Positions 3,833 to 59,908 of a stretch of DNA of 64,000 bases are shown here, in pieces. A model generated the notes under the pieces. It did not search any database. It was not told where the DNA came from and worked only from the letters and a program-made list of their open reading frames with translations. Source of the stretch: Adlercreutzia caecimuris B7 (GTDB lineage Bacteria > Actinomycetota > Coriobacteriia > Coriobacteriales > Eggerthellaceae); NCBI RefSeq assembly GCF_000403355.2, contig NZ_KE159646.1, positions 1,144,258-1,208,257 of the forward strand, given 5' to 3'. Each line of letters begins with the position of its first letter. The stretch's first letter is position 1. Made by a program: the position numbers and the translations under genes.

Positions 3833-3859
3833 GCGGCCGCCAGCCGAGGAGGGCCCGAG

Positions 3860-3941
3860 CATAACGGGCGCGCGGCATGTGCGGCAGCCTGTCGCTCATG
3901 CCGTATGTTGCCGGGACGGGCAGCCCATCGGCACGCAACAT
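3860..3941. other. Convergent gap with two hairpins
   Basis: The gap between cca (plus) and the TauE-like gene (minus) contains two short inverted repeats: CGGCATG/CATGCCG and ATGTTGC/GCAACAT, the second ending at the TauE stop. Neither is followed by a clear T-run. They may still separate the converging transcripts, but no terminator can be firmly called. Confidence 0.3.
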
Positions 3942-4691
3942 CTAGGCGATGAGATCGGCGATGAGCTTGACGGCGAACAGCGCGATGACCACGAGCATGA
4001 TGGGGCGCAGGACGAGCGCCCCCTTTCTGTCAAAGAAGGTGGAGCCGAGCCAGTTGCCCACGATGTTGAACGCCGCAGCGGCCAACCCGAGGGCGATGAG
4101 CACCTGACCGTTGACGAGAAACACCGCGAGAGCCGCCGCGTTCGTAGCCAGGTTGACAGCCTTGGTGGTGCCGGCCGCGCTCTTCACGTCCTGGCGGCCC
4201 ACCGCGGCGAGCAGCAGCATGAGGATGGTGCCGGTGCCCGGCCCGTAGAAGCCGTCGTAGATGCCCACGACCAGGGCGATGGCCGCGGTCGCTGCGAGGG
4301 CGGCGACCGACGGCAGAGGCCGCTCGGAGAACCGGTTGAGGTCTTTGGCGCGAAACACCAGCACAGCCACAGGCGGCAGGGCCACGAGCATGAACACCAT
4401 GAGTGCCGTGGCATCGGCAAGCAGGGCCAGGTTCGCGCCCGCGGCCGAACCAACCAGGCCGCAGACAACGCCCACGACGACGAACCGCTTCACCATATAG
4501 CCGAACAGCGCATAGCGCACACAGGCCACAGCGGTGCCCAGGGTGCTCGACAGCTTGTTGGTGGCGATAGCGGCATGGGCGGGAAGGCCGGCGAAGAAGT
4601 AAGCGGGCAGCGAGATGAGCCCTCCCCCGCCGGCGATGGCATCGACGAAGCCGGCGATGAGCGCCAGCGGGCACACGATGAGAAATTCCAT
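3942..4691 (-). CDS. TauE/SafE (TSUP) family membrane permease
   Basis: A 249-residue polytopic membrane protein of the TSUP/DUF81 family, whose members export or import small anions such as sulfite, sulfoacetate or thiosulfate. The N-terminus has the family GFVDAIAGGGGLISLP signature near residues 15-30, and a second similar repeat (GIYDGFYGPGTGT) sits at the start of the second half, giving the usual two-fold pseudo-symmetry of about 8 helices. The ATG at 4691 is preceded by AAAGGG about 6 bases away. It stands alone after the tRNA terminator. The substrate cannot be inferred from the neighbours. Confidence 0.85.
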   Translation of the reverse strand: MEFLIVCPLALIAGFVDAIAGGGGLISLPAYFFAGLPAHAAIATNKLSSTLGTAVACVRYALFGYMVKRFVVVGVVCGLVGSAAGANLALLADATALMVFMLVALPPVAVLVFRAKDLNRFSERPLPSVAALAATAAIALVVGIYDGFYGPGTGTILMLLLAAVGRQDVKSAAGTTKAVNLATNAAALAVFLVNGQVLIALGLAAAAFNIVGNWLGSTFFDRKGALVLRPIMLVVIALFAVKLIADLIA

Positions 4692-4821
4692 GGAGACCCT
4701 TTCCGCCGTCCGTTCGACTAGACGAACTCCAGCCTCGTCCCTTTAACAGCCGCAGGATGCGGGACACCGCGGTCTCGCGGCTGCCTCCTCGCCCCGGCGA
4801 CGACCGCCATCGCTCAGACAT

Positions 4822-4846
4822 GAAAAGAGCCGCCCGCAGGCGGCTC
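4822..4846 (-). terminator. Intrinsic terminator of the tRNA-Gln/Glu operon
   Basis: On the minus strand a perfect 8-bp GAGCCGCC/GGCGGCTC stem with a 4-base loop (4827-4846) is followed by TTTT (complement at 4823-4826), directly after the last tRNA-Glu. Almost the same hairpin terminates putP at 52225-52244. Confidence 0.85.
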
Positions 4847-4855
4847 GTGAGTTCT

Positions 4856-4932
4856 TGGTAGCTCCGACCGGATTCGAACCGGCGACCTCCGCCTTGAGAG
4901 GGCGGCGTCCTAAACCGCTAGACGACGGAGCC
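4856..4932 (-). tRNA. tRNA-Glu (anticodon CTC), copy 1
   Basis: A complete cloverleaf is readable on the minus strand: acceptor GGCTCCG pairs with CGGAGCT (first pair is G-U), and the anticodon arm CCGCC/GGCGG encloses loop CTCTCAA, giving anticodon CTC. The T arm contains GGTTCGAATCC. The 3' CCA is encoded (complement at 4856-4858). The mature sequence is identical to copy 2 at 4988-5064; only the flanks differ. Confidence 0.95.
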
Positions 4933-4948
4933 ACATAGTGCGCTTCAT

Positions 4949-4977
4949 AAAGCCGGGAGGGATAAACACCTCCCGGC
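4949..4977 (-). terminator. Hairpin between the two tRNA-Glu copies
   Basis: A 9-bp GCCGGGAGG/CCTCCCGGC stem with an 8-base loop (4952-4977) is followed on the minus strand by TTTATG. The T-run is short, so it may be a weak terminator or a processing hairpin between the tRNAs rather than a full stop. Confidence 0.5.
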
Positions 4978-5088: not shown

Positions 5089-5162
5089 TGGCTGGGGTGG
5101 AAGGAGTCGAACCCTCACATACGGCACCAGAAACCGCTGTCCTGCCATTAGACGACACCCCA
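5089..5162 (-). tRNA. tRNA-Gln (anticodon CTG)
   Basis: On the minus strand, the acceptor TGGGGTG pairs with CACCCCA. The anticodon arm encloses loop TTCTGGT, giving anticodon CTG (reads CAG), and the T arm contains GGTTCGACTCC. The discriminator is G and CCA is encoded at the 3' end (complement at 5089-5091). U1-A72 is the usual first pair of bacterial tRNA-Gln. First gene of the tRNA operon. Confidence 0.94.
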
Positions 5163-5209
5163 ACGACAATTCTTCGCACGAACCGCTAAAGCGGTAAGCG
5201 CAAGTGAGT

Positions 5210-5238
5210 ATATTAATGATGAAGGAGCTGTCCGTCAA
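5210..5238 (-). promoter_or_regulatory. Promoter of the tRNA-Gln/Glu/Glu operon
   Basis: Minus strand: -35 TTGACG (complement at 5233-5238), 17-bp spacer, -10 TAATAT (complement at 5210-5215), about 50 bp upstream of tRNA-Gln. Near-consensus sigma70-type promoter. Confidence 0.75.
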
Positions 5239-5357
5239 GACCCAATTTTCTCTTTTTTCGGAATACCCCTCAAGCGGTACGGGCGGCAGAGACAGCGCGG
5301 TCTGCTCTCGGGCGGCGTGGAGCCCTGTGGAGTCGGGAGCTGTTCGCAAGCGACAGG

Positions 5358-6053
5358 CTATTCCTCGGGAGTGCGCCATGCGCAGGGATCGGGGGCGGAC
5401 AGAGCACGGATGCCCTGGATGATGATCTCCACGCCGTGGGCGAAGGCCTCCTCGGTGTAGGCGCTTCGCACGATGCGCTGCCACAGCGGCGCCGCAGCCG
5501 CCTCCCCGTCAGCGCCGCCCCCTCCCTCTTCCCTCAGCTCGGCAGCGGAAACCCCCTTCCGCTCCGCCTCAGCCTGCAAGGCAATGGCATTGCCGACGAA
5601 TCCGGCGAGATAGGCGTCCACCATAGCCCAGGCCTGGCGCAGCACCGGCTCGGGCATGCCCTGGGCCAAATGCAGGCTCACAATCTTCTCGGTATGGGCG
5701 GCCAGGCCGTTGCCGGCTGCCTGGGGGTTCACATCGATGGAGGCCACCTCGGGATGGGCCAGCTCCTCCCGGTAGATGGAGGTCATGGTGCGACGCAGGG
5801 TGTCGTCCCAACGCTCCCCGGGAACCGGATCGGTATCCATCGTGCCCATGAACCGCTCGAGCACCGCGCAGAGAACCTCGTCGCGGGAAACGAAGTGACT
5901 GTACACCGCCATGGCCGACACGCCCAGATCGCGGCCGAGCGCGCGCATGGTGAAGGCGCCGAGGCCCTCCCGTTCGATGAGCTCGGTCGCCACCTGAACG
6001 ATGTGGTCGCGCGTGAGCGCCGGGCGCTCCTTAGCGGCCGGGGCATGTCCCAT
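5358..6053 (-). CDS. TetR/AcrR family transcriptional regulator
   Basis: About 231 residues, with an N-terminal TetR helix-turn-helix (around residues 16-62: start of helix at LTRDHIVQVATELIEREG, recognition region LGVSAMAVYSHF) and a C-terminal ligand domain of the TetR_C type. The ATG at 6053 is chosen over an upstream in-frame TTG because it has AAGGGAG 7 bases upstream. A -10-like TATACT lies just upstream, inside the terminator of the adjacent flavocytochrome operon. Its target is not proven. The two TTTACA-N-TGTAAA palindromes at 7901-7960 are of a kind TetR proteins bind, making it a candidate repressor of that operon. No such palindrome lies before its own gene. Confidence 0.88.
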   Translation of the reverse strand: MGHAPAAKERPALTRDHIVQVATELIEREGLGAFTMRALGRDLGVSAMAVYSHFVSRDEVLCAVLERFMGTMDTDPVPGERWDDTLRRTMTSIYREELAHPEVASIDVNPQAAGNGLAAHTEKIVSLHLAQGMPEPVLRQAWAMVDAYLAGFVGNAIALQAEAERKGVSAAELREEGGGGADGEAAAAPLWQRIVRSAYTEEAFAHGVEIIIQGIRALSAPDPCAWRTPEE

Positions 6054-6101
6054 GGGGGCGACTCCCTTCTCCGTCGCGTTTACCTCGTAAGGCAAGTATA
6101 G

Positions 6102-6132
6102 AAAAGCGGCGCGCCCGCGAGGAGCGCGCCGC
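6102..6132 (-). terminator. Terminator of the flavocytochrome operon
   Basis: A perfect 9-bp GCGGCGCGC/GCGCGCCGC stem with a 9-base loop (6106-6132) is followed on the minus strand by TTTTC. It lies 35 bp downstream of the cytochrome stop codon and overlaps the presumed promoter of the TetR gene. Confidence 0.8.
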
Positions 6133-6164
6133 CTTCTTCCCCATCTGGAATCCAGACCCGATCC

Positions 6165-6548
6165 CTAGGCCGCTTGGAGCGCGGTGCCCGGACCCTGCTC
6201 GGGGTTATGGGGCCAGCTGTGGCAGTTGTCGCACTGGTTGTCGGTGACTTCCTTGTCCCGGGCGTGGCAGTTCACACAGGAGTTGGGGCCGCCGTGAATG
6301 GAGCCGTGGGGGTTCGACAGGCCGTAGTCGGCCGTGGTCTCGGCCAGGGCGTCGTAGGAGCCGCCGTGGCAGGACAGGCACTGCTCGTCGGAGACGTACA
6401 TGCCGTCGCCCGTATCAGCCATCTCGGTGTGGACGCCGCCGGCGGCATCCTCGGTCGTGGACTGAGTCGCCGGCGCGCAGGCGGCCAGGGCCGCGCAGAG
6501 GGCCACCGCACAGGCAACGCCGGCCAGCTTGATCATGTTCTTCTTCAT
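6165..6548 (-). CDS. Small multiheme c-type cytochrome lipoprotein (flavocytochrome partner)
   Basis: A 127-residue exported cytochrome. The N-terminus is a lipoprotein signal peptide (KKNMIK start, hydrophobic core, LAAC lipobox with Cys near residue 24). Three CxxCH heme-binding motifs are visible: CLSCH, CVNCH and CDNCH, with further histidines (NPHGSIHG, SWPHN) as likely distal ligands. It resembles the heme subunits that feed electrons to Tat-exported fumarate/urocanate-reductase-type flavoproteins. It starts 4 bp after the flavoprotein stop, with GGGGGAG as ribosome site, so the pair is translationally linked. It is intact although the flavoprotein is broken. Confidence 0.85.
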   Translation of the reverse strand: MKKNMIKLAGVACAVALCAALAACAPATQSTTEDAAGGVHTEMADTGDGMYVSDEQCLSCHGGSYDALAETTADYGLSNPHGSIHGGPNSCVNCHARDKEVTDNQCDNCHSWPHNPEQGPGTALQAA

Positions 6549-10433: not shown

Positions 10434-11793
10434 AAACAGTGAGTCCGTCCATGATGTCGTTCACCGTCTTCATGGCGCACATCTTGCCGCACATGGTGCA
10501 GGTGCCCTCAGTGGAGGGCGGAGCGCTCTCGAAGACAGCGCGGGCGCGGGCCGGATCCAGGGCCAGATCGAACATCTCGTCCCAGGCCACGCGCCGGCGG
10601 GCGTCGCTCATGCGGTTGTCGCGGTCACGGGCACCGGGCACGCCCTTGGCGATGTCGGCGGCGTGGGCGGCGATCTTCGTGGCCACCAATCCCTCGCGCA
10701 CATCGGCCGCGTCGGGCAGGCGCAGGTGCTCGGCCGGGGTCACATAGCACAAAAAGTCGGCGCCCGCAGTGGCCGCAACGGCCCCGCCGATGGCGGCCGT
10801 GATATGGTCGTAGCCGGGGGCGATGTCGCACACGAGCGGCCCCAGCACGTAGAAGGGGGCATCGTGGCACAGACGCTTCTGCAGCTTCATATTGGCGGCG
10901 ATCTCGTCGAGGGCCATATGTCCCGGGCCCTCCACCATCACCTGCACGCCGGCATCCCAAGCGCGACGCGTGAGCTTGCCCAGCTCGATGAGCTCGGCGA
11001 TCTGCGCCGCATCGGTGGCGTCGTAGCCGCTGCCGGGACGCATGGCATCGCCCAGCGAGATGGTCACGTCGTGCTCGTGCAGGATGGCCAGTACCTCGTC
11101 GTAGTACTCGTAGAAGGGGTTCTCACGCCCCGTGGCCTCCATCCAGGCGAAGATGAGGGAGCCGCCGCGGGAGACGATGTTGGTCAGGCGGCCCGTCTCC
11201 TTGAACGACTCGATGACCCGGCGGTTCATACCCGCGTGGATGGTGACGAAGTCCACGCCGTCTTCCGCATGGGCCCGCACCACTTCCAAAAAGTCCTCGG
11301 GCGTGATGGCGATGAGGGACTTTTCCAGATAGCCGATGGCATCGTACATGGGCACCGTGCCGATCATGGCCGGCGACTGCTCGATAAGCTTCGTGCGGAA
11401 GGCGCGCGTCTTGCCGGAGTTCGACAGATCCATGATGGCATCGGCCCCCAGTTCCAGGGCCACGGCCACCTTCTCCCATTCCGTCGCCTCGTCGGCCAAG
11501 TCGCCAGAGATACCGAGGTTCACGTTCACCTTGGTGGTCAGCGGCACGCCGTCCAAGGTGGAGCCCACGCCGCCCGGTGTCAGGCTCGCATGGTGGATGT
11601 TGGCGGGAATGGCGATGCGGCCGGCGGCCACGGCAGCGCGGATGGCCTCGGGCTCGCGGCCCTCGGCGGCGGCCACGGCGGCCATCTGGGGCGTGACGAT
11701 GCCGGCACGGGCATAATCGATCTGGGTGACGGGTGCGGCAGCGGCCGGGGCTGAGACGGCGGCAGATACGGACGTTGTGCGATCTTCGATCAT
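10423..11793 (-). CDS. thiC: Phosphomethylpyrimidine synthase ThiC
   Basis: A 456-residue radical-SAM enzyme converting aminoimidazole ribotide to HMP phosphate. Characteristic stretches include [12 protein letters not shown] (near 70), [12 protein letters not shown] (near 290), [11 protein letters not shown] (near 325), and the C-terminal cluster motif CTMCGKMC, in which three cysteines can bind the [4Fe-4S] cluster. The spacing seen is Cx2Cx3C. The start is the ATG at 11793, with AAGGGAG 4 bases upstream; an upstream in-frame ATG at 11820 lies inside the riboswitch and is rejected. Expression is controlled by the TPP riboswitch directly upstream. Confidence 0.96.
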
Positions 11794-11802
11794 AAAACTC
11801 CC

Positions 11803-11903
11803 TTCGTTGGCATTACCCACAGCAGGTTCGGCGGGTCGAGGCGTATGCGGCGCCTCCTCTCAGCCTGCCCGGCCGCCCATACGGCGGCTGCAAGCTCCCC
11901 GAA
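11803..11903 (-). promoter_or_regulatory. TPP riboswitch (THI element) upstream of thiC
   Basis: On the minus strand the conserved blocks appear in order: GGGGAGCTTG, then GGCTGAGAGG (pyrimidine-sensing J3/2 region), then CGACCC-GAACCTG, then TGGGTAATGCCAACGAAGGGA. These are the hallmarks of the TPP aptamer. The ribosome site of thiC (AAGGGAG) begins in the 3' strand of the closing helix and no T-run hairpin follows. Control by masking of the ribosome site is therefore more likely than attenuation. Confidence 0.95.
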
Positions 11904-11922
11904 TATGAGGTTGTGGTCGCTA

Positions 11923-28085: not shown

Positions 28086-29576
28086 TTAGTTGGTCTCCGT
28101 CTCGCCGAAGGCGCGCACGAGCTCCTCGGCGGCCACCTTGCGGTCGTCGAAATCGAGCACGGCATCGCCCACCAGCTGGTAATCCTCATGGCCCTTGCCG
28201 GCCAGAAGAATGGCATCGCCCGGACGAGCCTCGGCAATGGCGGCCGCGATGGCGGCGCGGCGGTCGGGCTCCACGATAAAGGCGCCGTCGGCATCCATGC
28301 CCGCCACGATGTCGTCGATGATGGCCTGCGGATCCTCGTGACGCGGGTTGTCGCTCGTCACCACGGCGAAATCGGCGGCCAGGGCCGCGGCGCCCATGAT
28401 GGGCCGCTTGCCCGCGTCGCGGTTTCCACCGCAGCCGAAGACCACGATGGTGCGCCCGCCCGACAGCTCTTGGATGGAAGCGATAGCCTTCGTCAGCGCG
28501 TCGGGGGTATGGGCGTAGTCCACATAAACGGTCACCGGCGCATCGACGCCGGCATCCACCTGCTCCAGGCGGCCGGGAACGGCCGGCATGGTGGCAAGCG
28601 CGTCCACGATGACATCGGTCGGAATGCCGAGCGCGAGCGCGCAGCCGAAGGCCGTCATGACGTTCTCCACATTGAAGCGGCCCACGAGGGGATAGACGAC
28701 GTCCACCTTCGCCCCGCGCACCTCGAGCGTCACGCGCGTGCGCGTGGCCTCGTAGGCGATGTCGACCGGATGAATCTGGGCCATGGACGCAAAGCCGGTG
28801 GTGATCACCTCGTCGCCCGCCTCGGTCGCGCGTCGCAGAAGCTCGCGACCCCAGGAGCTGTCGATATTGATGACGCGGCGCGCCGGATAGGCGCGGGAGA
28901 ACAAGAGCGCCTTGGCTTCGAAGTAGTCGTCGAAGGTATGGTGGTAGTCCAGGTGGTCCTGGGTCAGGTTCGTGAACGCGGTCACCGCGAAGTCGGTGCC
29001 CCAGGTGCGCTGCAGGTCGAGCGCGTGCGAGCTTACCTCCATGGCCACCACCGTGCAGCCTGCGTCCCGCATGCGGGCGAAGAGCTTCTGCAGGTCGGGC
29101 GACTCGGGAGTGGTGTGCTCGGAGTGCTCCATACGCCCGGCGATCTTGTTGCCCACCGTGCCGATGACGCCGCAGCGGTTGCCGGCCACGCTCGCGATAT
29201 GCTCCACCAGATAGGTCGTGGTGGTCTTGCCGTTGGTACCCGTAATGCCCACGAGCGAGAAGTCGGCCGAGGGATGGTCGTAGAAGCTCACAGCGGCGTG
29301 GGCCATGGCCTTGCGGGAATCGGCCACCACCACCTCGGCAACGTCGGTGGCATCGGCCAGATACACCTTGCGCTGAACCACCAGCGACGTGGCGCCGCGA
29401 TCGATGGCGTCTTGGGCAAAGGAGTGGCCGTCCACCACATTGCCTACGATGCAGAAGAACATGTCGCCCGGCTCGACGGCATCGGAGCGGAACGACAGGC
29501 CCGTCACCTCCTCGTCGCCGTTGCCGATGATGGTGCATTCCATTCCCTGGAAGAGCTCTGCGCAAGTATGGGTCAT
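28086..29576 (-). CDS. murE: UDP-MurNAc-L-Ala-D-Glu--diaminopimelate ligase MurE
   Basis: 496 residues; adds the third stem residue. Motifs: the P-loop GITGTNGKTTTTYLVEHIA (near 108-126), SSHALDLQRTWG, FTNLTQDHLDYHHTFDDYFEAK, YAHTPDALTKAI, and VTSDNPRHEDP in the C-terminal domain. The DNPR motif is that of the meso-diaminopimelate-adding enzymes; lysine-type MurE has a different sequence there. A DAP-containing wall is therefore expected. The ATG at 29576 lies just after the ftsI stop, with AAAGGA about 10 bases upstream. Confidence 0.95.
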   Translation of the reverse strand: MTHTCAELFQGMECTIIGNGDEEVTGLSFRSDAVEPGDMFFCIVGNVVDGHSFAQDAIDRGATSLVVQRKVYLADATDVAEVVVADSRKAMAHAAVSFYDHPSADFSLVGITGTNGKTTTTYLVEHIASVAGNRCGVIGTVGNKIAGRMEHSEHTTPESPDLQKLFARMRDAGCTVVAMEVSSHALDLQRTWGTDFAVTAFTNLTQDHLDYHHTFDDYFEAKALLFSRAYPARRVINIDSSWGRELLRRATEAGDEVITTGFASMAQIHPVDIAYEATRTRVTLEVRGAKVDVVYPLVGRFNVENVMTAFGCALALGIPTDVIVDALATMPAVPGRLEQVDAGVDAPVTVYVDYAHTPDALTKAIASIQELSGGRTIVVFGCGGNRDAGKRPIMGAAALAADFAVVTSDNPRHEDPQAIIDDIVAGMDADGAFIVEPDRRAAIAAAIAEARPGDAILLAGKGHEDYQLVGDAVLDFDDRKVAAEELVRAFGETETN

Positions 29577-29583
29577 GGCTCGT

Positions 29584-31353
29584 CTATTCCTTTGAGGTTG
29601 CGGGTTGCTTTGCTTCGGCCGCCGTGATGTTGTACTGCTTGACGGCATTAGACATTATATCGTTAAAAATTTGGGTAGTCTGGCGCATGGCGTAAACCTC
29701 GTTGGCTCCTACAAAACAAACCAATTTGCTCGAGGAGTTGTCGATAAACCCGCAGAACCCGAGGTTGTAGACCTCCTGCTTATAGCCGCCCTCCTCTGAG
29801 GGGATCTCGGCGGTGGAGGTTTTGCCGCACACCTCGTAGCCCTCGATGTCGGCCGCCACGCCAGTGCCGTTGGTCACCACCGAGCGCAGCATCGAGCGCA
29901 GATCCTCGATGGCCTCCATATCCTCGGTCACCGTCTCCTCGTGGTAGGTGGGAACCTCCCCGCTCTGGGTCTTCGCGATGAGGAAGTGCGGGGTGACCAT
30001 GACGCCGTCGTTGGCGATGGCGCCGTAGAAACGCACCATCTGCAAGGGGGTCACCGAAATGCCCTGGCCGAAGCTGATGTTGTAGCCGGTGATGCGGCCC
30101 CACTTGCTGAAATCGAGCACACTGCCAGAACCCTCGCCGGGGTAGTCGATGCCCGTGGCCTCGGTAAGGTGGTAGCGCTTGATGGCGTCGTTGAGCTTGT
30201 CGAAGCCGGCATTGTAGCTGGCCAGCGAGATACCCACGTTCGAGGAGTGGTTCAGGATCTCGCGCAGCGAGTAGGTGGCGCCGTCTCGCTCATGGGAGTC
30301 GGAGACGTCGTAGTCGTTGGCCGAGATGGTGCTCGGGCAGAACATGGTGGTCTCAGGCCCCATGGCCTTGCTCTCCAGAATAGCCATGGCCGATACCGAT
30401 TTGAAAGTGCTTCCGGGCTCGTAGGGCTGGGTGATGGCCTTCACATGCTCGCTTCCCACCTCGGATTTCGTCATATCGGTAGGATCCATGTAGGGCAGCG
30501 AGCAGGCTGCGTACACCTCGCCGGTGGCCGCATCCATCACGATGGAGGAACCCTCCTCGGTTTCCAGCTCCTCCACGCCCTCTTCCAGGGCGCGCTCCAC
30601 GGTATCCTGGAGCTTGATATCGAGCGAGATCATGATGTCCTGGCCGTCAACGGCGGCCACTTCCTCCTTCACCCCGCCGGGGATGGGAAAGCCCTTCTCG
30701 CCGCGCTCGGCCACATAGACGCCGGGGGTGCCCTTCAAAATGTCGTCGTACTGCAGCTCCAGGCCCGTAAGGCCCTCGCCGTCGGCGTTGCAGAAACCCA
30801 CCACCTGGCCGCCTACGGAACCGTGGGGGTACTCGCGGCGCATGTCGGCGATGAAGTAGATGCCGTCCAGATCGAGTTCCTTCACCTTCTCGGCCTTGTC
30901 CACATCGGCCTGGCGCTTGATGTAGACGAAGGTGGTGGAGGGGGTGGCGAGCAGATCCTGGTAGTCGTCGGCCTCGCCGCCGAGCACGTCGGCCAGCTGA
31001 CGGGCCTCCTCGACGGCGTTGCTCACTTCCACCGGGTTCGCGTAAATGGTCGTGGCCTCCACGCTCGTGGCGAGCACGATGCCGTTGCGATCGTAAATGG
31101 TCCCGCGGCGCGGGGAGGTCTCGAAGCTGACCGTACGCGACTCCTCGGCCATGGCCGAGTACTGATCGGCAACGATAACCTGGAGGAATATCAGGCGCAA
31201 GAAGAAGGCGGCCGCAATGGCAGCGAAAACGAGCAGCACGACCCGCGTCCGCTCGGGCAGCGCTCCGATCACGGAGGCGAAAGCGTCGCGGGCGCCCATA
31301 GGCGTCGAGCTGGCGCGACCGCGGCCGCGGCGCTGACGAGACGGGGTGCCCAT
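29584..31353 (-). CDS. ftsI: Class B penicillin-binding protein (FtsI/PBP3 type)
   Basis: 589 residues. A short basic tail and one membrane helix (VVLLVFAAIAAAFFLRLIFL) are followed by the dimerisation domain (RRGTIYDRNGIVLATSVEATTIYANP). The transpeptidase domain has the SxxK motif in PGSTFKSVSAM, the SxN motif in HSSNVGISLA and the KT(S/G) motif as GKTSTAE. It cross-links septal peptidoglycan with FtsW. The ATG at 31353 has GGAG upstream and overlaps nothing; ftsL ends 4 bp earlier. No C-terminal PASTA domains were seen. Confidence 0.95.
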   Translation of the reverse strand: MGTPSRQRRGRGRASSTPMGARDAFASVIGALPERTRVVLLVFAAIAAAFFLRLIFLQVIVADQYSAMAEESRTVSFETSPRRGTIYDRNGIVLATSVEATTIYANPVEVSNAVEEARQLADVLGGEADDYQDLLATPSTTFVYIKRQADVDKAEKVKELDLDGIYFIADMRREYPHGSVGGQVVGFCNADGEGLTGLELQYDDILKGTPGVYVAERGEKGFPIPGGVKEEVAAVDGQDIMISLDIKLQDTVERALEEGVEELETEEGSSIVMDAATGEVYAACSLPYMDPTDMTKSEVGSEHVKAITQPYEPGSTFKSVSAMAILESKAMGPETTMFCPSTISANDYDVSDSHERDGATYSLREILNHSSNVGISLASYNAGFDKLNDAIKRYHLTEATGIDYPGEGSGSVLDFSKWGRITGYNISFGQGISVTPLQMVRFYGAIANDGVMVTPHFLIAKTQSGEVPTYHEETVTEDMEAIEDLRSMLRSVVTNGTGVAADIEGYEVCGKTSTAEIPSEEGGYKQEVYNLGFCGFIDNSSSKLVCFVGANEVYAMRQTTQIFNDIMSNAVKQYNITAAEAKQPATSKE

Positions 31354-54124: not shown

Positions 54125-55414
54125 ATGCCGCGCTACGCAGATATGTCGAAGGCGGAATTGGAGACCGAGCTAGCGGCCGTGCGGGCCCTCTACGACGAGA
54201 TGGTCGCCCGGGGGCTTTCCCTGAATATGGCCCGCGGCAAGCCGTCGGCGGCGCAGCTGGAGCTTTCCCTGCCGATGCTGGACGTCCTGGACGCAACCGC
54301 CGATCTTGCAGCCGAGGACGGCACCGACTGCCGCAACTACGGGGTGCTCGACGGCATTCCCGAGGCGAAGCGGCTCATGGCACGCCTTCTGGATGATGAG
54401 CCCGAGAACGTCATCGTGCTGGGCAACGCCAGCCTCACGGCCATGTACGACGCCATGGTGCGATACCTGCTGTTCGGTGCCTTGGGAAGCGAGCCCTGGG
54501 GGCAGCTCGGCGAGGTGACGTGGCTCTGCCCCGTGCCGGGCTACGACCGCCACTTCACCATCTGCGAGGCGTTGGGCATCCGGATGATCCCCGTGCCCAT
54601 GGACGAGCACGGCCCGGACATGGACGAGGTGGAGCGCCTGGTGGCCGAGGACGCCTCCATCAAGGGCATCTGGTGCGTGCCGAAGTACTCGAACCCCACG
54701 GGCATCACCTACTCCGATGACGTGGTGCGCCGCCTGGCGGCCATGGACACCGCCGCGCCCGACTTCCGCATCTTCTGGGACAACGCCTACGCCGTGCACC
54801 ACTTCTCCGCCGATGCCGCCGAGCAGGATACCGTACTCGACATCGCCATCGCCTGCCGCGAGGCGGGCAACCCCGACCGCTACCTGAAGTTCGGTTCTAC
54901 CTCCAAGATCACTTTCCCCGGGGCTGGCGTGGCGGCCGTGGCGGCGAGCCCTGCCAACGTAGCGGAGATCAAGCGCCACATGAGCGCCCAGGCCATCGGC
55001 CACGACAAGCTGAACCAGCTGCGCCATGCCCGCTTTTTGGACGAGGGACGCAAGCTCGCGGCCCACATGGCACGCCACGGTGAGCTCATGGCGCCGAAGT
55101 TCGACCTGGTGTGCCGCCGCCTGGGCGAGGAGCTGGGCGAGGCCGGCATTGCCACGTGGACGAACCCCCGGGGCGGTTACTTCGTGAGCTTCGAGGGGCC
55201 CGAGGGCACCGCCCGCCGCATCGTGGAGTTGGCGAAGGAGGCCGGCGTGACCATGACCGGCGCGGGCGCCACCTGGCCCTACGGCGACGACCCGGCCGAT
55301 TCCAACATCCGCATCGCGCCGTCGCTGCCGCCCCTGGAAGAGCTGGACGCCGCCATGGACGTGTTCTGCTGCTGCGTGAAGCGCGCTGCCTTGGAGAAGA
55401 TACTCGCAGACTAA
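54125..55414 (+). CDS. Aspartate-type aminotransferase (PLP, fold type I)
   Basis: 429 residues of the class I/II aminotransferases, closest in appearance to the type Ic aspartate aminotransferases of Actinobacteria (PF12897). Visible motifs: LNMARGKPSAAQLELSLPML (near 35-54), NYGVLDGIPEAKRLMA, WCVPKYSNPTGITYSDDVVRRLA, FRIFWDNAYAVHHF (PLP-pyridine Asp), and the PLP-Lys in KFGSTSKITFPGAGVA (near 265). It interconverts aspartate and oxaloacetate, so could supply Asp to the operon that follows. ATG at 54125 with AAAGGA 5 bases upstream. A terminator separates it from the ATP-grasp gene. Confidence 0.9.
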   Translation: MPRYADMSKAELETELAAVRALYDEMVARGLSLNMARGKPSAAQLELSLPMLDVLDATADLAAEDGTDCRNYGVLDGIPEAKRLMARLLDDEPENVIVLGNASLTAMYDAMVRYLLFGALGSEPWGQLGEVTWLCPVPGYDRHFTICEALGIRMIPVPMDEHGPDMDEVERLVAEDASIKGIWCVPKYSNPTGITYSDDVVRRLAAMDTAAPDFRIFWDNAYAVHHFSADAAEQDTVLDIAIACREAGNPDRYLKFGSTSKITFPGAGVAAVAASPANVAEIKRHMSAQAIGHDKLNQLRHARFLDEGRKLAAHMARHGELMAPKFDLVCRRLGEELGEAGIATWTNPRGGYFVSFEGPEGTARRIVELAKEAGVTMTGAGATWPYGDDPADSNIRIAPSLPPLEELDAAMDVFCCCVKRAALEKILAD

Positions 55415-55425
55415 ACAATCTGTCC

Positions 55426-55586
55426 GCGCGGGAGGGGCCGGCATCATCGCCGGCTTACCCGCTTCGCTATTCGCCCTTCGGGCTCAGGCGCTGCGCTGCC
55501 TCATGCATTTACCGGGACGGTCTTCGACCGTCCTCTTTTCTGCAGTATTCAGAGAAAGCCGTCGACGACGCCGGCCCCTCCCGCGC
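55426..55586. repeat. Long inverted repeat after the aminotransferase (element D)
   Basis: The arms 55426-55442 and 55570-55586 are perfect 17-bp reverse complements (GCGCGGGAGGGGCCGGC). A further 18 positions inwards match at 12. The centre contains a GCCGGC/GCCGGC hairpin on the left and the aminotransferase terminator (55515-55539). Same plan as elements B and C, different sequence. No open frame. Confidence 0.8.
55515..55539 (+). terminator. Terminator of the aminotransferase gene
   Basis: GGACGGTC/GACCGTCC stem with a TTC loop (55515-55533) followed by TCTTTT on the plus strand, nested inside inverted-repeat element D. Confidence 0.82.
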
Positions 55587-55715
55587 TCCCCATCTCCGTA
55601 AGGAAAAGTTACGGGGGTCTTACTATTTCTTCAGCTTTTGCTATGGGAAGCGTAATGGGGGCGACCCCTACCATGGACCTTGGACGGAACAATGCGAGTT
55701 CAGGAGTTGAGCGCC

Positions 55716-57149
55716 ATGGAGAAAACGGACGCCCCCGACGTGCTGCCGGTGATACTGGGGGGCGACATCGGCGCCTACAGCCTGGCCCGGGCCTTCCACG
55801 AGGCCTACGGCATCGTCTCCCTCGTGCTGTCCCAGGCCGACTGCCATATGTGCGGCGACTCCTCCATCCTCGTGAACCGGGTGGTACCGCATCTGGAGCG
55901 CCGCGAGGTGCTGCTGTCCACCCTGGCCGATGTGGCCGAATGCTTCGACCACCGCCCTCTGCTGCTGCTCGGCTGCGGCGACTGGTACGTGCGCGCCATC
56001 GTGGAGATGCGCACCCAGCTCGAGAGCGCCTTCATCATCCCCTACATCGGCGAGGATCTCCTGAACCGCCTCACCGACAAGGAGCGTTTCTACGCCCTGT
56101 GCGCCGAAGTCGGCGTGCCCACCCCGCGCACCGTTGTGGTGGATCTGGCCGACCCGCAGTTCGACCCCGCCGCGCTGAAGCTCCCCTTCCCCTTCCCCGT
56201 CGTGGCCAAGCCCGCCTCCTCGGCGGCCTACCACTATGCCGACTTTCCCGGCAAGGAGAAGGTGTTCTTCCCCCGCGACGGCGCCGAGCTCGCCCGCGTG
56301 CTCGGCGCCGTGCAGAAAAGCCGCTACGACGGATCGTTTCTCATTCAGGAGACCATTCCCGGTGACGACACCCATATGCGCATCTTGACCACCTATTCCG
56401 ATCAGACGGGAAAAGTGCGCTTCGCCGCCTTCGGCCAGACGCTTCTGGAAGACATGCGGCCCATGGGGGTGGGCAACCCGCTGGCCATTGTGAGCCGAGT
56501 AGACGAGACCGTCGTGGCCGAGGCGATGCGGCTTTTGGAGGCCGTGGGCTACACCGGCTTCGCGAACTTCGACATCAAGGTGGATCCGCGCGATGGCAGC
56601 CACGTGTTCTTCGAGATCAACACGCGGCTCGGCCGCAGCAACTACTATGTGACGGCCGCCGGCTACAACGTGGCCCGCTGGCTCGTGGACGACCTCGTAG
56701 AGGGCCGCGGGCTTCCGGCCGGGCTCACCGTAGCCCGCACCACCGACTCGCTGTACACCGTGGTGCCGAAGGCCATTTTGGTGGACTACATCCGAGACGA
56801 CGACCTTAAGCGCGAGGTGCGCAGCCTGTATGCCCTGGGCCTCGACGCCGACCCTCTGGACTACGAGGCCGAGCGCAACCTGCGACGACGACTCTATCCC
56901 CTCGCATTCGCCGCCCGCCAATGGCGCACCTGCCGGGCGGCTCTGGCCGCCAAACGAGCCCGGGAAATGCGCGGGGAAGCCTCTTTCGGGTGCGGGGTAA
57001 CCCCGCACCCGGCCCGTGCCCAGCACGGGCCGGCGCCTGATGGGAGTCCCGACTGCGGGCAGGAGGACCCCGCGCCCTCTGCCGGCGGCGCGCCTGCGCC
57101 CACCACGCTCAAGGGCGCCGAAGACTGCTGGGCGGGAGCAACCCTGTGA
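55716..57149 (+). CDS. ATP-grasp carboxylate-amine ligase, D-aspartate-ligase-like
   Basis: 477 residues. The N-terminus (VLPVILGGDIGAYSLARAFHEAYGI) and the ATP-grasp core (FPFPVVAKPASSAAYHYADFPGKEKVF, SFLIQETIPGDDTHMRILTTY, and metal-site FANFDIKVDPRDGSHVFFEINTRLGRSNYY) resemble the family of the Enterococcus faecium D-aspartate ligase, which attaches D-Asp to the peptidoglycan stem peptide. The next gene is an aspartate/glutamate racemase, as in E. faecium, supporting that role. AGGAG lies 9 bases before the ATG at 55716; an ATG at 55692 is possible. The last 50 or so residues are Gly/Pro/Ala-rich and encoded by GC hairpins, unlike the family. Stop overlaps the racemase GTG (GTGA). Confidence 0.75.
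   Translation: MEKTDAPDVLPVILGGDIGAYSLARAFHEAYGIVSLVLSQADCHMCGDSSILVNRVVPHLERREVLLSTLADVAECFDHRPLLLLGCGDWYVRAIVEMRTQLESAFIIPYIGEDLLNRLTDKERFYALCAEVGVPTPRTVVVDLADPQFDPAALKLPFPFPVVAKPASSAAYHYADFPGKEKVFFPRDGAELARVLGAVQKSRYDGSFLIQETIPGDDTHMRILTTYSDQTGKVRFAAFGQTLLEDMRPMGVGNPLAIVSRVDETVVAEAMRLLEAVGYTGFANFDIKVDPRDGSHVFFEINTRLGRSNYYVTAAGYNVARWLVDDLVEGRGLPAGLTVARTTDSLYTVVPKAILVDYIRDDDLKREVRSLYALGLDADPLDYEAERNLRRRLYPLAFAARQWRTCRAALAAKRAREMRGEASFGCGVTPHPARAQHGPAPDGSPDCGQEDPAPSAGGAPAPTTLKGAEDCWAGATL
56988..57033. repeat. Twin GC hairpins inside the 3' end of the ATP-grasp gene
   Basis: Two back-to-back perfect palindromes: GGGTGCGGGG-TAA-CCCCGCACCC (56988-57010) and CCGGCCCGTGC-CCA-GCACGGGCCGG (57009-57033). 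They are read in frame as part of the ligase tail, which looks like extra sequence appended to the gene. Confidence 0.8.
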
Positions 57150-57943
57150 CCGCTCGCTTGGTGGGTGTACTCGGCGGCGTGGGGCCGGGGGCAACCGCCT
57201 ACTTCCTGCAGCGCATCGTGGAGCGCACCAATGCCTCCTGCGATCAAGACCACGTACGCACCCTGGCCTTCAACGATACCGCCATCCCCGACCGCACGGC
57301 CTTCATCACCGGCGAAAGCGCCCGCTCGCCCATATCCGCGCTCATCGAGGATGGCCAGCTTCTGGAGGCCTGCGGCTGTGAAGTGCTGGCCCTGCCCTGC
57401 AACACGGCGCATGCGTTCTTCGACGAGATACAGGCATCCCTGCGCGTGCCCGTGGTGCACATGGTGCGCGAGACCGTGCGCGCCGCCACCGAGGCAGGCT
57501 GCCGCCGCTTGGGCGTGCTGGCCACCCGCGGCACCGTGCTCACCGACGTGTACGGCCGCGAAGGGGCGCGTCGGGGCGTGGAATGCCGCTACCCCGCCGA
57601 AGCCGTGCAACAGCACGTGGGCCGCATTATCTTCGACGAGGTGAAGGCGGGGCGCACGGTGCATCGCGTCGTGCTCGACGAGCTGGCGACCGACCTGGCC
57701 GATGCGGGCTGCGACGGCATCGTGCTCGGATGCACCGAGCTGTCGCTGGCCTTCGGGGGCGCACGGCATGCGGCCGGGCTGCCCGTCATAGATGCCCTGG
57801 ACGTGCTCGCCGACCGCGTGATCGCGCTCGGCGGCGGCACCCCCGTGCGCGCAACCGTCGAGAAAACGCCGAGGCAGGCGGGTGCCGAAGCGGATCCTGC
57901 ACCGCTACCGCAAAAACGCGCCATTTCACTATCCGAGATTTGA
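57146..57943 (+). CDS. Aspartate/glutamate racemase family protein
   Basis: 265 residues of the cofactor-independent two-cysteine racemases. Both catalytic Cys are visible: CEVLALPCNTAHAFF (near 83) and DGIVLGCTELSLAF (near 197), with the N-terminal LVGVLGGVGPGATAYFLQRI. The pattern is that of aspartate racemases, giving D-Asp from L-Asp. The start is a GTG at 57146 overlapping the ligase stop by three bases, so the two are translationally coupled. This pairing (ligase + racemase) is the known D-Asp branch module. The last 30 residues are an extra tail. Confidence 0.85.
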   Translation: MTARLVGVLGGVGPGATAYFLQRIVERTNASCDQDHVRTLAFNDTAIPDRTAFITGESARSPISALIEDGQLLEACGCEVLALPCNTAHAFFDEIQASLRVPVVHMVRETVRAATEAGCRRLGVLATRGTVLTDVYGREGARRGVECRYPAEAVQQHVGRIIFDEVKAGRTVHRVVLDELATDLADAGCDGIVLGCTELSLAFGGARHAAGLPVIDALDVLADRVIALGGGTPVRATVEKTPRQAGAEADPAPLPQKRAISLSEI

Positions 57944-58036
57944 CCAGGCATTTTTCAAAGTTTTACCAGATCAGGCGCACTGGCGCGAATGTTCGCTTTT
58001 GGTGCAGAAGACATCGAGGAACGTGAGGAGAACCCT

Positions 58037-59908
58037 ATGTGCGGATTTGTCGGCTGGGTCGATGAGGGCGCCGCGGGCTACGATGCCGCCACGACCATCC
58101 GGCGCATGGCCGACGCCATCGCCCATCGCGGCCCCGACTCCGAGGGCTTTTACGCCGATGAGCGATGCGCCTTGGGCTTCCGCCGCCTGGCCATCATCGA
58201 CCTGGCCGGCGCGAACCAGCCCCTCTTCAACGAGGACGGGTCGCTCGTGCTCGTGTTCAACGGCGAGGTGTACAACTACCGCACGCTGCGGCGCGAGCTC
58301 ATCGCGCACGGCCACGCCTTTGCCACCGAAGGCGATGCGGAAGTGGTGCTCCACGGCTTCGAGCAATGGGGCGAAGCCGTGCTCGACCGCCTGCGCGGCA
58401 TGTTCGCCTTCGCGCTGTACCGCCCCGCAAAAGGCGAGCTCTTCCTGGCACGGGACGCCTTCGGTATCAAGCCCCTGTACTGGCACGCCGAAGGCGGCGC
58501 CGTCGTGTTCGGTTCCGAGATAAAGGCCCTTCTCGCGCACCCCCGCGTGCCCCGGCAGCTGAACGAGCGGCGGCTCGGGCACTGGCTGTGCATGGAATAC
58601 CTGCCCGACGAGGAGACCCTGTTCCGAGGCGTGCGCAAGCTGCCCGCGGGCCACTGGCTCCGCTGGCGCGACGGACACGCCGAGGTGCGCCGCTGGTTTG
58701 CCCCGCGCTTCGCGCCCGACCCCTCCCTGCGCCCCGAGGCGGCGGCCGAGGCCATCGAGGCCGCGGTGCGGGAGTCGGTGGCGGCCCACGCGGTGGCCGA
58801 TGTGGAAGTGGGCTGCTTCCTCTCGGCGGGCGTGGATTCCAGCCTCGTCGCCGCCGAAGCGTCCCGCATCATGGAGGCGCGCACCTTCTCCATCGGCTAC
58901 GGCGAGGAGCGCTACTCGGAGCTTGCCGCCGCGGCGGCCTTCGCCAAGGCGACGGGGCTGCCCAACCGAGCGCGGCACCTGGGCGCCGAGGAGTTCTTCG
59001 CCTCGGTGCCCGCCGTGCAGTACGCCATGGACGAGCCTCTGCCCAACCCCTCCGCCGTGCCCCTGTACCACCTGTGCCGCATGGCGGCCGAATCGGTGAA
59101 GGTGGTGCTGTCGGGGGAAGGGGCCGACGAGCTGTTCGGCGGGTATCCCTACTACCAGGAATACCTCGCCTTCGAGCCCTACCGGGCCCTGCCCGCGCCC
59201 CTGCGCCGCGCCCTGGCCGCCGGCGCGCGCCAGCTGCCGCCGGGCATGCACGGGCGGCGCTTCCTCTTGCGCGGGGCGCACCCCCTCGCCGAGCGCTACA
59301 TCCGCCTGGAGTACAACTTCACCTGGGAAGAGGCTCTCGGCCTGCTCGCCGGCGACCTGGCCGCCGAAGCGGCAGGTGCGAAAGCTCCCTGGGAGGCGAC
59401 ATCCGCGCTCTTCGCCGAGCTGGAGCGCGATGGGGCGGATCGGCTCGACGAGGCGACCCTCATGCAGACCGCCGACATCCTCACCTGGATGCAGCAGGAC
59501 ATCCTGCTGAAGGCCGACAAGATGTCCATGGCCGCCTCGCTGGAGCTGCGCGTGCCCTTTCTCGATCGCGAGGTGTTCGCCTGCGCCCGCACCCTGCCGC
59601 GAAAGATGCGTGTGACGCGCCGTGAGACGAAGCCGGCCCTGCGCCGCGCCGCTGCCCGCACTCTGCCGTCCGTCACGGCGGCCATGCCCAAGAAGGGCTT
59701 TCTCACACCGCTTTCCCAGTGGCTGCGCGAGGAGCCGTGGGCAGGTCAGGTGCGCGAGGCGCTCCACAGCGCCACGGCGCGGCAGTTCTTCCGCGTCGAG
59801 GCACTGGATGCGCTCCTTGACGAGCACCGAAGCGGCGCCCGTTCGCATATGAAGAGGATTTGGTCGGCCTACTGCTTCGTCCTGTGGCACGAAGCCTACT
59901 TCAGCTAG
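58037..59908 (+). CDS. asnB: Asparagine synthetase, glutamine-hydrolysing
   Basis: 623 residues. It must start at the ATG at 58037, since Cys2 (MCGFVGWVDE) is the glutaminase nucleophile; GAGGAG lies upstream. The N-terminal class II GATase domain (HRGPDSEGFY, FNGEVYNYRTLR) is followed by the synthetase domain with the PP-loop LSAGVDSSLVA (near 264-274) and SGEGADELFGGY. It makes Asn from Asp, or in the Lactococcus AsnH variant amidates D-Asp in the peptidoglycan branch. It lies 93 bp behind the racemase on the same strand, so the second role is plausible here by context only. Confidence 0.92.
   Translation: MCGFVGWVDEGAAGYDAATTIRRMADAIAHRGPDSEGFYADERCALGFRRLAIIDLAGANQPLFNEDGSLVLVFNGEVYNYRTLRRELIAHGHAFATEGDAEVVLHGFEQWGEAVLDRLRGMFAFALYRPAKGELFLARDAFGIKPLYWHAEGGAVVFGSEIKALLAHPRVPRQLNERRLGHWLCMEYLPDEETLFRGVRKLPAGHWLRWRDGHAEVRRWFAPRFAPDPSLRPEAAAEAIEAAVRESVAAHAVADVEVGCFLSAGVDSSLVAAEASRIMEARTFSIGYGEERYSELAAAAAFAKATGLPNRARHLGAEEFFASVPAVQYAMDEPLPNPSAVPLYHLCRMAAESVKVVLSGEGADELFGGYPYYQEYLAFEPYRALPAPLRRALAAGARQLPPGMHGRRFLLRGAHPLAERYIRLEYNFTWEEALGLLAGDLAAEAAGAKAPWEATSALFAELERDGADRLDEATLMQTADILTWMQQDILLKADKMSMAASLELRVPFLDREVFACARTLPRKMRVTRRETKPALRRAAARTLPSVTAAMPKKGFLTPLSQWLREEPWAGQVREALHSATARQFFRVEALDALLDEHRSGARSHMKRIWSAYCFVLWHEAYFS

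What the first reader, a model, noticed from the sequence alone, without database searches (positions are those of the whole stretch)
55716..59908. D-aspartate ligase-like/racemase/AsnB operon in a genome with a DAP-type MurE
An ATP-grasp ligase of the E. faecium D-Asp-ligase type, an aspartate/glutamate racemase (coupled by a GTGA overlap) and AsnB form one operon, with an aspartate aminotransferase just upstream. In enterococci and lactococci the ligase and racemase build a D-Asp branch on lysine, and an AsnB homologue (AsnH) amidates it. Here MurE has the meso-DAP motif DNPRHEDP, and DAP walls usually have direct cross-links. Either this organism has a D-Asp/D-Asn branch on DAP (A4-gamma-like) or the module makes another D-Asp product. 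What is seen: gene order and motifs. What is inference: the product.
Basis: partly seen in the sequence, partly recalled or inferred. Interest (0 to 1): 0.75.

Follow-up and report, generated by a model that had tools for sequence, protein, structure and literature searches.

The report
D-aspartate module in diaminopimelate-wall bacterium
Three neighbouring genes of a gut Adlercreutzia-like bacterium look like a complete kit for hanging D-aspartate (or its amide) on the cell-wall peptide, a kit known from bacteria with lysine or ornithine walls, yet this family has diaminopimelate walls that are recorded as directly cross-linked or not analysed, so a simple wall analysis would show whether the recorded type is wrong.

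Summary
Observation confirmed. Ligase (55716-57149), racemase (57146-57943, GTGA overlap) and AsnB-type amidotransferase (58037-59908) form one unit in an Adlercreutzia-like genome whose MurE (28086-29648, minus) has DNPRHEDP. The aminotransferase upstream is probably separate. The ligase belongs with ATP-grasp ligases of lactobacilli and of a genome matching Olsenella uli (L-Orn-D-Asp wall); in four relatives it shares a gene cluster with a non-DAP MurE. The module also occurs in DAP-motif Eggerthellaceae, Eggerthella lenta included, and Clostridia. A genome matching Brachybacterium faecium, a meso-DAP wall of type A4gamma, has two such ligases in tandem. In one congener distant homologues of all three genes sit in the same slot. 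The ligase-linked AsnB clade was not found in 16 ligase-less relatives read. Best explanation (0.72): D-Asp is joined to the side amino group of meso-DAP in the peptidoglycan precursor and probably amidated by the AsnB. The chemistry is not shown. E. lenta is published as A1gamma, which speaks against this; a 2024 review gives no type for Adlercreutzia. New variant of a known kind, apparently widespread.

The parts
55716..57149 (+). ATP-grasp carboxylate-amine ligase, D-Asp ligase type (477 aa; residues 426-477 a low-confidence tail)
57146..57943 (+). PLP-independent aspartate/glutamate-family racemase (265 aa), overlapping the ligase by GTGA; cysteines 85 and 196 lie in PCNTAH and GCTE
58037..59908 (+). 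AsnB-type glutamine amidotransferase (623 aa) with Cys2 and SAGVDS loop; ligase-linked clade IV
28086..29648 (-). MurE with the meso-DAP motif DNPRHEDP
54125..55414 (+). Aspartate aminotransferase type Ic (Rv3722c family), conserved neighbour in the genus, probably not in the operon
55514..55618 (+). two terminator-like hairpins (55514-55534 and 55592-55618) between aminotransferase and ligase
   Evidence: consensus scan, number close to chance expectation

Best explanation
The three genes are a peptidoglycan branch module. The racemase turns L-Asp into D-Asp. The ATP-grasp ligase activates a D-Asp carboxyl with ATP (for AslA as beta-aspartyl phosphate) and joins it to the free amino group of meso-DAP in the precursor made by the DAP-type MurE. 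The AsnB-type enzyme then amidates, most likely the free carboxyl of the added D-Asp (AsnH-like), less likely the DAP carboxyl. The wall would carry D-Asp or D-Asn on DAP, as a bridge (A4gamma-like) or as a side branch. Shown here: gene order, homology, motifs, co-occurrence, a cassette exchange. Inferred: substrate, acceptor, order of steps, and whether the branch is cross-linked. That the ligase joins a D-acidic amino acid to peptidoglycan precursor is about 0.85 likely, DAP as acceptor about 0.72, D-Asp rather than DAP amidation by the AsnB about 0.6.
For: 1) The ligase has tblastn matches of 30-36% identity in plasmid records of Lactobacillus crispatus, Limosilactobacillus fermentum and Latilactobacillus curvatus, beside asnB in L. 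crispatus and beside an amino acid racemase in L. curvatus. Most lactobacilli have D-Asp/D-Asn bridges; in L. lactis aslA and racD share an operon and AsnH amidates (PMC4155827, passages). 2) A genome of exactly the length of Olsenella uli (2,051,896 bp), wall L-Orn-D-Asp, holds a 37% identical ligase with a divergent racemase next to it. 3) In G070, G251, G198 and G256 a MurE with a non-DAP motif is in the same gene cluster as the ligase, in three of them with AsnB between. 4) 55 of 77 ligase-positive family genomes have an AsnB within 4.5 kb (only copied AsnB rows used, so a lower bound). 5) All 28 rows of AsnB clade IV come from ligase-positive genomes; AsnB of 16 ligase-less family genomes read all fall in clade III. 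6) In congener G213 the same slot holds distant homologues of the three genes (36-41%) between flanks 88-93% identical. 7) DAP as acceptor: DNPR here, in 35 of 50 ligase-positive Eggerthellaceae and in 18 of 21 Clostridia/other Bacillota genomes asked; family walls contain DL-A2pm (PMC6113628, passages); the genome of exactly the length of B. faecium (3,614,992 bp), wall A4gamma with meso-DAP, has two tandem ligases and a DNPR MurE. 8) No FemAB family match in this genome.
Against: E. lenta type strain is published as A1gamma (PMC3035228, passage), yet the genome of its length (G068) has ligase and clade IV AsnB; no racemase lies in the 13 kb read around that ligase. The ligase is no marker of DAP walls: 15 of 17 family genomes without the DNPR pattern have it against 35 of 59 with the pattern, and in the rest of the order 124 of 137 have it while 9 of 137 have the pattern. 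Outside the order 72 of 83 class genomes have the pattern and 2 the ligase. The characterised Aslfm and AslA sequences were not compared. The MurE motif is only part of DAP specificity (PMC3829189, passages). The racemase passes the cut-off of cysteate racemase CuyB. The AsnB is the only one found in this genome at E 1e-60 and an AsnRS is present, so it may make free L-Asn. The ligase family includes Cellulomonas, where walls with D-Glu are recalled, so the added residue could be D-Glu. No residue position cleanly separates DAP from non-DAP ligases.
Confidence: 0.72

Rival explanations
1. The ligase and racemase act as above, but the AsnB amidates the free carboxyl of meso-DAP (like AsnB1/LtsA) and not the added D-Asp; the linkage reflects a shared substrate.
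For: The linked clade IV AsnB is found in genomes that mostly have the DAP motif. G179 and G274, which lack the DNPR pattern (MurE of G179 read as DNAH), have ligase and racemase but no AsnB hit at E 1e-60. In Oceanobacillus limi (DNPR MurE) the ligase is followed by an AsnB 62% identical to that of Listeria.
Against: Listeria- and Tsukamurella-type AsnB form a distant clade. In G070 and G198 an AsnB (clade II) lies between ligase and a non-DAP MurE. Clade IV was not found in 16 ligase-less family genomes read, most with the DAP motif.
Confidence: 0.25
2. The AsnB is the cell's L-asparagine synthetase and only ligase and racemase make the wall branch (D-Asp, not amidated).
For: Only one AsnB is found in this genome and an AsnRS is present; TIGR01536 asparagine synthase is over cut-off.
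Against: Clade IV was seen only with the ligase in what was read, and G068, G155, G072 and G030 carry a clade III AsnB as well.
Confidence: 0.2
3. The module makes another D-Asp or D-Glu product (a secreted peptide, a polymer, or cysteate-type metabolism), not a wall branch.
For: No curated family names the ligase; the racemase passes the CuyB cut-off; E. lenta is published as A1gamma.
Against: Non-DAP MurE in the same cluster as the ligase in four relatives, presence in organisms with D-Asp walls and in the genome matching A4gamma B. faecium. The neighbours look by eye like ordinary redox, transport and regulator genes; they were not searched against families.
Confidence: 0.12
4. The genome is in practice not DAP-type: MurE takes lysine or ornithine in spite of the motif, and the wall is an ordinary A4alpha/A4beta type.
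For: The motif alone does not fix specificity (PMC3829189, passages); some family members have non-DAP MurE motifs.
Against: Family walls contain DL-A2pm, Adlercreutzia DL- or LL-A2pm (PMC6113628, passages); MurE is 71% identical to that of the genome matching E. lenta, whose wall has meso-DAP.
Confidence: 0.06

Closest known systems
AslA/RacD/AsnH system of Lactococcus lactis and Aslfm of Enterococcus faecium
   Same: ATP-grasp ligase, aspartate racemase and AsnB-type amidotransferase; ligase and racemase in one operon (PMC4155827, passages)
   Different: There the acceptor is L-Lys; here MurE is DAP-type. The AsnB is in another clade than lactobacillus AsnB. The characterised sequences were not compared.
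A4gamma peptidoglycan of Dermabacteraceae (Brachybacterium, Dermabacter, Devriesea)
   Same: meso-DAP wall of type A4gamma (A31.2 being m-Dpm-D-Asp-D-Glu is recalled); the genome of B. faecium length has two tandem ligases of this family
   Different: One ligase here, with racemase and AsnB; its ligases lie apart from the window clade in the tree
A4alpha / A4beta walls of Atopobium parvulum and Olsenella uli
   Same: Same class, D-Asp bridge; homologous ligase in the genome of O. uli length
   Different: L-Lys or L-Orn instead of DAP
meso-DAP amidotransferases AsnB1 (L. plantarum) and LtsA (Corynebacterium, recalled)
   Same: AsnB architecture acting on peptidoglycan precursors
   Different: The window AsnB does not group with Listeria/Tsukamurella AsnB; AsnB1 and LtsA sequences were not compared

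Membership tests
D-aspartate ligase (Aslfm/AslA type) | ATP-grasp fold | tested here: met
   AlphaFold2 pLDDT 84.3; Foldseek best hits L-amino acid ligase 3vot, biotin carboxylase, PurK, TM about 0.5 by query
D-aspartate ligase (Aslfm/AslA type) | homologous to ligases of organisms with D-Asp walls | tested here: met
   lactobacilli and genome of O. uli length; Aslfm and AslA themselves not at hand
D-aspartate ligase (Aslfm/AslA type) | Asp racemase in the same operon | tested here: met
   GTGA overlap
D-aspartate ligase (Aslfm/AslA type) | joins D-Asp to the precursor | not testable with these tools
   needs enzyme assay
PLP-independent aspartate racemase | two cysteines in PCNTAH and GCTE as in P. 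horikoshii enzyme 1jfl | tested here: met
   that these are the catalytic cysteines is recalled
PLP-independent aspartate racemase | specific for Asp rather than cysteate or Glu | tested here: inconclusive
   asp_race 200 bits (cut-off 93), CuyB 207 bits (cut-off 190)
AsnH (D-Asp amidation) | AsnB architecture linked to the ligase | tested here: met
AsnH (D-Asp amidation) | groups with AsnB of lactobacilli with D-Asp walls | tested here: not met
   separate clades II and IV; hence called AsnH-like only; AsnH of L. lactis itself not compared
meso-DAP amidotransferase (AsnB1/LtsA) | groups with Listeria/Tsukamurella AsnB | tested here: not met
   that these two are meso-DAP amidases is recalled
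A4gamma peptidoglycan | DAP-type MurE | tested here: met
   DNPRHEDP; motif is suggestive, not proof
A4gamma peptidoglycan | D-Asp or D-Glu bridge on meso-DAP in the wall | not testable with these tools
   needs muropeptide analysis; E. lenta reported A1gamma, Adlercreutzia listed without a type

The most novel reading that the evidence does not exclude
D-Asp/D-Asn-branched meso-DAP peptidoglycan is not a curiosity of Dermabacteraceae but common in DAP-type gut Actinomycetota and Clostridia (Eggerthellaceae including E. lenta, Oscillospiraceae, Lachnospiraceae) and in some Bacillaceae and Intrasporangiaceae, having been acquired several times. The A1gamma type of such bacteria would often be a default assignment; at least one description assigned A1gamma to a meso-DAP wall by exclusion (Oceanobacillus massiliensis, PMC4062624, passage).
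Probability: 0.5. Interest if true: 0.82.

Novelty: new variant of a known kind. Interest (0 to 1): 0.62.

Why it matters
If true, the cross-link chemistry of much of a family of gut bacteria, and of many gut Clostridia, is recorded wrongly or not at all. A table in a 2024 review of the gut peptidoglycome gives no type for Adlercreutzia, Gordonibacter and Ruminococcus (PMC11382707, passages). Substituting and amidating meso-DAP would change which hydrolases and endolysins cut the wall and, as recalled, how well NOD1, which senses DAP peptides, responds. It also gives a clear test: one LC-MS run on E. lenta decides whether its published A1gamma type stands.

Tried and rejected
Tried without result: Pfam and NCBIfam do not name the ligase. 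PDB sequence search gives no relative better than E 0.0044. A scan for residues separating DAP from non-DAP ligases gave no clean column (best score 0.75 of 1 over all columns, not corrected for many tries). Ten literature searches (open PMC papers only, capped listings) showed no paper that reports D-Asp on DAP in Eggerthellaceae or Clostridia among those I opened; of the ten papers opened I saw passages only.

Considered and rejected: aminotransferase as an operon member (gap and hairpins; not in the 13 kb read around the ligase in G242, G203, G185); an unrelated ATP-grasp function; FemABX bridge enzyme (none found in this genome).

Rows left out and limits of counts: one search used 50 ligases of more than 350 aa; one search used 64 rows (chosen from the 80 loci and from earlier rows); one search dropped rows named L15x or L16x for speed; one search used 57 chosen AsnB rows. 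One search used only AsnB rows copied, mostly those starting at residue 1-3, so 55 of 77 is a lower bound; one of the 55 (G213) is clade III. In some searches, of 21 Clostridia/other Bacillota genomes 18 read DNPR, one DNCR (L167), one gave no read at the motif (L155) and one no MurE match (L144); Shouchella and Bacillus timonensis have further MurE-like copies reading DNPN and DNPK, and a Cellulomonas genome (L189) was not held. In one search DNPR also occurs in many genomes of unknown wall type, so there the motif proves less. The counts 137 and 83 (genomes of the order outside the family, and outside the order) are hand counts. Names of flanking genes (stomatin, PutP, FprA, GntR, NrfD, TorD) are by eye. 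Many genomes are incomplete assemblies, so absences are weak.
Full report
What is there. The window lies at C1:1144258-1208257 of a 2.96 Mb genome. By the ligase its nearest relatives in the named collection are uncultured Enterorhabdus/Adlercreutzia (76-83%) and Adlercreutzia hattorii (77%), so it is Adlercreutzia-like, family Eggerthellaceae. Four genes on the plus strand were checked: aspartate aminotransferase type Ic 54125-55414, ATP-grasp ligase 55716-57149, racemase 57146-57943 and AsnB-type amidotransferase 58037-59908. Ligase and racemase share GTGA; the AsnB starts 93 nt after the racemase stop. The aminotransferase ends 301 nt upstream, with two terminator-like hairpins between; their number is near chance. 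MurE at 28086-29648 minus reads DNPRHEDP.

What the proteins are. The ligase model (pLDDT 84.3; residues 426-477 below 50) is an ATP-grasp fold whose best PDB matches are an L-amino acid ligase, biotin carboxylase and PurK. Sequence search of plasmid records found it in Lactobacillus crispatus (35.6%), Limosilactobacillus fermentum (34.1%) and Latilactobacillus curvatus (29.5%), beside asnB in the first and beside an amino acid racemase in the last. A Subdoligranulum record has ligase, racemase and AsnB in the same order. The racemase aligns along 223 residues with Pyrococcus horikoshii aspartate racemase, PCNTAH and GCTE kept. The amidotransferase has Cys2 and an SAGVDS loop.

Distribution in the class. 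The ligase was found in 176 of 296 Coriobacteriia genomes and in 77 of 138 family genomes. Of the 76 family genomes in the class sample, 35 have ligase and the DNPRxExP pattern, 24 the pattern without ligase, 15 the ligase without the pattern and 2 neither. In the rest of the order 124 of 137 have the ligase and 9 of 137 the pattern; outside the order 2 of 83 have the ligase and 72 of 83 the pattern (hand counts). So the ligase goes mainly with non-DAP walls, and the DAP-motif Eggerthellaceae are the exception. This is the expected pattern for a D-Asp ligase and is what makes the DAP cases interesting. MurE reads from the other families of the order are EDPA, DDPG, DDPW and the like in place of DNPR, and in G070, G251, G198 and G256 such a MurE is in the same cluster as the ligase, with AsnB between in the first three. 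This ties the ligase to the diamino acid of the stem.

Known chemistry. A genome whose single contig has exactly the published length of Olsenella uli, wall L-Orn-D-Asp (PMC3035265, passage), holds the ligase with a divergent racemase next to it. Atopobium parvulum, same class, has L-Lys-D-Asp (PMC3035223, passage; I did not identify its genome). Against the reading, Eggerthella lenta is given as A1gamma with meso-DAP (PMC3035228, passage), but the genome of its length (G068) has a ligase 307 bp from an AsnB; no racemase lies in the 13 kb read there. Eggerthellaceae walls contain DL-A2pm (PMC6113628, passages). One description states that meso-Dpm is known only from A1gamma types and from A4gamma of Dermabacteraceae, and assigned A1gamma by exclusion (PMC4062624, passage). 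Such practice would hide a D-Asp branch; whether it was used for E. lenta I do not know.

A positive control for DAP as acceptor. Of 396 genomes sampled from the order of an Isoptericola genome, 202 have the ligase. One, G709, has a contig of 3,614,992 bp, exactly the length of Brachybacterium faecium, whose wall is A4gamma with meso-DAP (PMC3035206, passages); the stretch read has 71% G+C against 72.1% published. It carries two ligases in tandem (L270) and a DNPR MurE. Two ligases would fit a two-residue bridge (the composition m-Dpm-D-Asp-D-Glu is recalled). Of two other Brachybacterium species, one was found to have aspartic acid in its meso-DAP wall and one not (PMC6090031, passages). Both B. 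faecium ligases lie apart from the window clade, so this shows that the family can serve DAP walls, not that the window enzyme is their orthologue.

Evolution. Ligases of DAP-motif Eggerthellaceae fall in three separate clades: the window clade, the E. lenta clade within those of the non-DAP families, and a clade beside lactobacilli (the label needs at least four changes on the starred branches). The window clade nests among Clostridia ligases of 47-56% identity. Of 44 Clostridia/other Bacillota loci outside Bacillaceae, 29 have the racemase, 31 an AsnB and 22 both near the ligase; 6 have neither, several on short contigs. Of 21 such genomes asked for MurE, 18 read DNPR. Of 25 other Actinomycetota loci 20 have the racemase and none an AsnB.

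The AsnB. Trees separate a Listeria/Tsukamurella pair (joined by Oceanobacillus limi), clade II (lactobacilli, Planococcaceae, Collinsella, Subdoligranulum, Eggerthellaceae with non-DAP MurE), clade III (family genomes with or without ligase) and clade IV with the window protein. All 28 rows of clade IV come from ligase-positive genomes, but the Clostridia rows were found through the ligase. AsnB of 16 ligase-less family genomes that I read all fall in clade III: G257, G270, G282, G297, G188, G211, G004, G134, G132, G235, G271, G344, G345, G346, G306, G299. In 55 of 77 ligase-positive family genomes an AsnB lies within 4.5 kb (lower bound). Hence clade IV most likely works with the ligase. Which carboxyl it amidates is open: G179 and G274, without the DNPR pattern, keep ligase and racemase but have no AsnB hit, which favours DAP; clade II lying between ligase and a non-DAP MurE favours D-Asp for its relatives. 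The branching order of clades II, III and IV is weakly supported (92/75). The window genome has no other AsnB at E 1e-60, so a role in L-Asn supply is not excluded.

Cassette exchange. In G213, same genus, the slot between the stomatin gene (92% over the part read) and aminotransferase/PutP (88%, 93% over the part read) holds a racemase (41%), a ligase of the E. lenta clade (36%) and a clade III AsnB (41%), in another order and orientation. Exchange of all three in one place indicates one function.

Verdict. The module is most likely a D-Asp (D-Asn) branch system working on meso-DAP. It works like AslA/RacD/AsnH; membership of the AsnB in AsnH proper is not met by the tree. The missing evidence is chemical. 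Interest is raised by the breadth of the distribution and by the direct conflict with the published type of E. lenta, and lowered because each enzyme kind is known and A4gamma on meso-DAP already exists.

Noticed in passing
L091 (G213:C15:8000-18000): Same chromosomal slot as in the window, but racemase, ligase and AsnB are distant homologues (36-41% identity) between flanks that are 88-93% identical.
   Followed up: yes
L270 (G709, contig 3,614,992 bp) 3770-4975 and 5116-6237: Two tandem ligases of this family in the genome that matches Brachybacterium faecium by length; similar pairs in L279, L280, L286, L287.
   Followed up: partly
L190, L199, L200, L201, L205, L206, L209: Isoptericola genomes carry two tandem ligases followed by the racemase, which may mean a two-residue bridge or two specificities.
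   Followed up: no
L123 (G056) and L124 (G179): MurE 48-58% identical to the window MurE with the DNPR motif degraded (SADFEG, NDNAHGE); G056 also has a second MurE-like gene. Possible switches of the diamino acid.
   Followed up: partly
L125 and L139 (G198): Two MurE-like genes: a short one 46% identical to the window MurE with no read at the motif, and one with DDPG beside ligase and AsnB.
   Followed up: no
L081 (Collinsella aerofaciens): asnB, a MurE annotated as DAP ligase but reading EDPA, HAD hydrolase, murI and rph in a row.
   Followed up: no
L194 (Oceanobacillus limi): Ligase followed by an AsnB 62% identical to that of Listeria, in a genome with a DNPR MurE: a possible second way of pairing ligase and amidotransferase on DAP.
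   Followed up: partly
L077 (Lactobacillus crispatus plasmid p1): asnB and the ligase gene (annotated hypothetical) lie on a 96 kb plasmid next to nrdDG.
   Followed up: no
window 56991-57146: Ligase residues 426-477 are a low-confidence tail that most rows outside the window clade lack in the alignment.
   Followed up: no
L080 (NZ_CP030101.1): A 2.9 Mb Listeria record is filed as a plasmid; by its size it is a chromosome.
   Followed up: no
window 11782-11911 (-): TPP riboswitch just over its gathering score.
   Followed up: no
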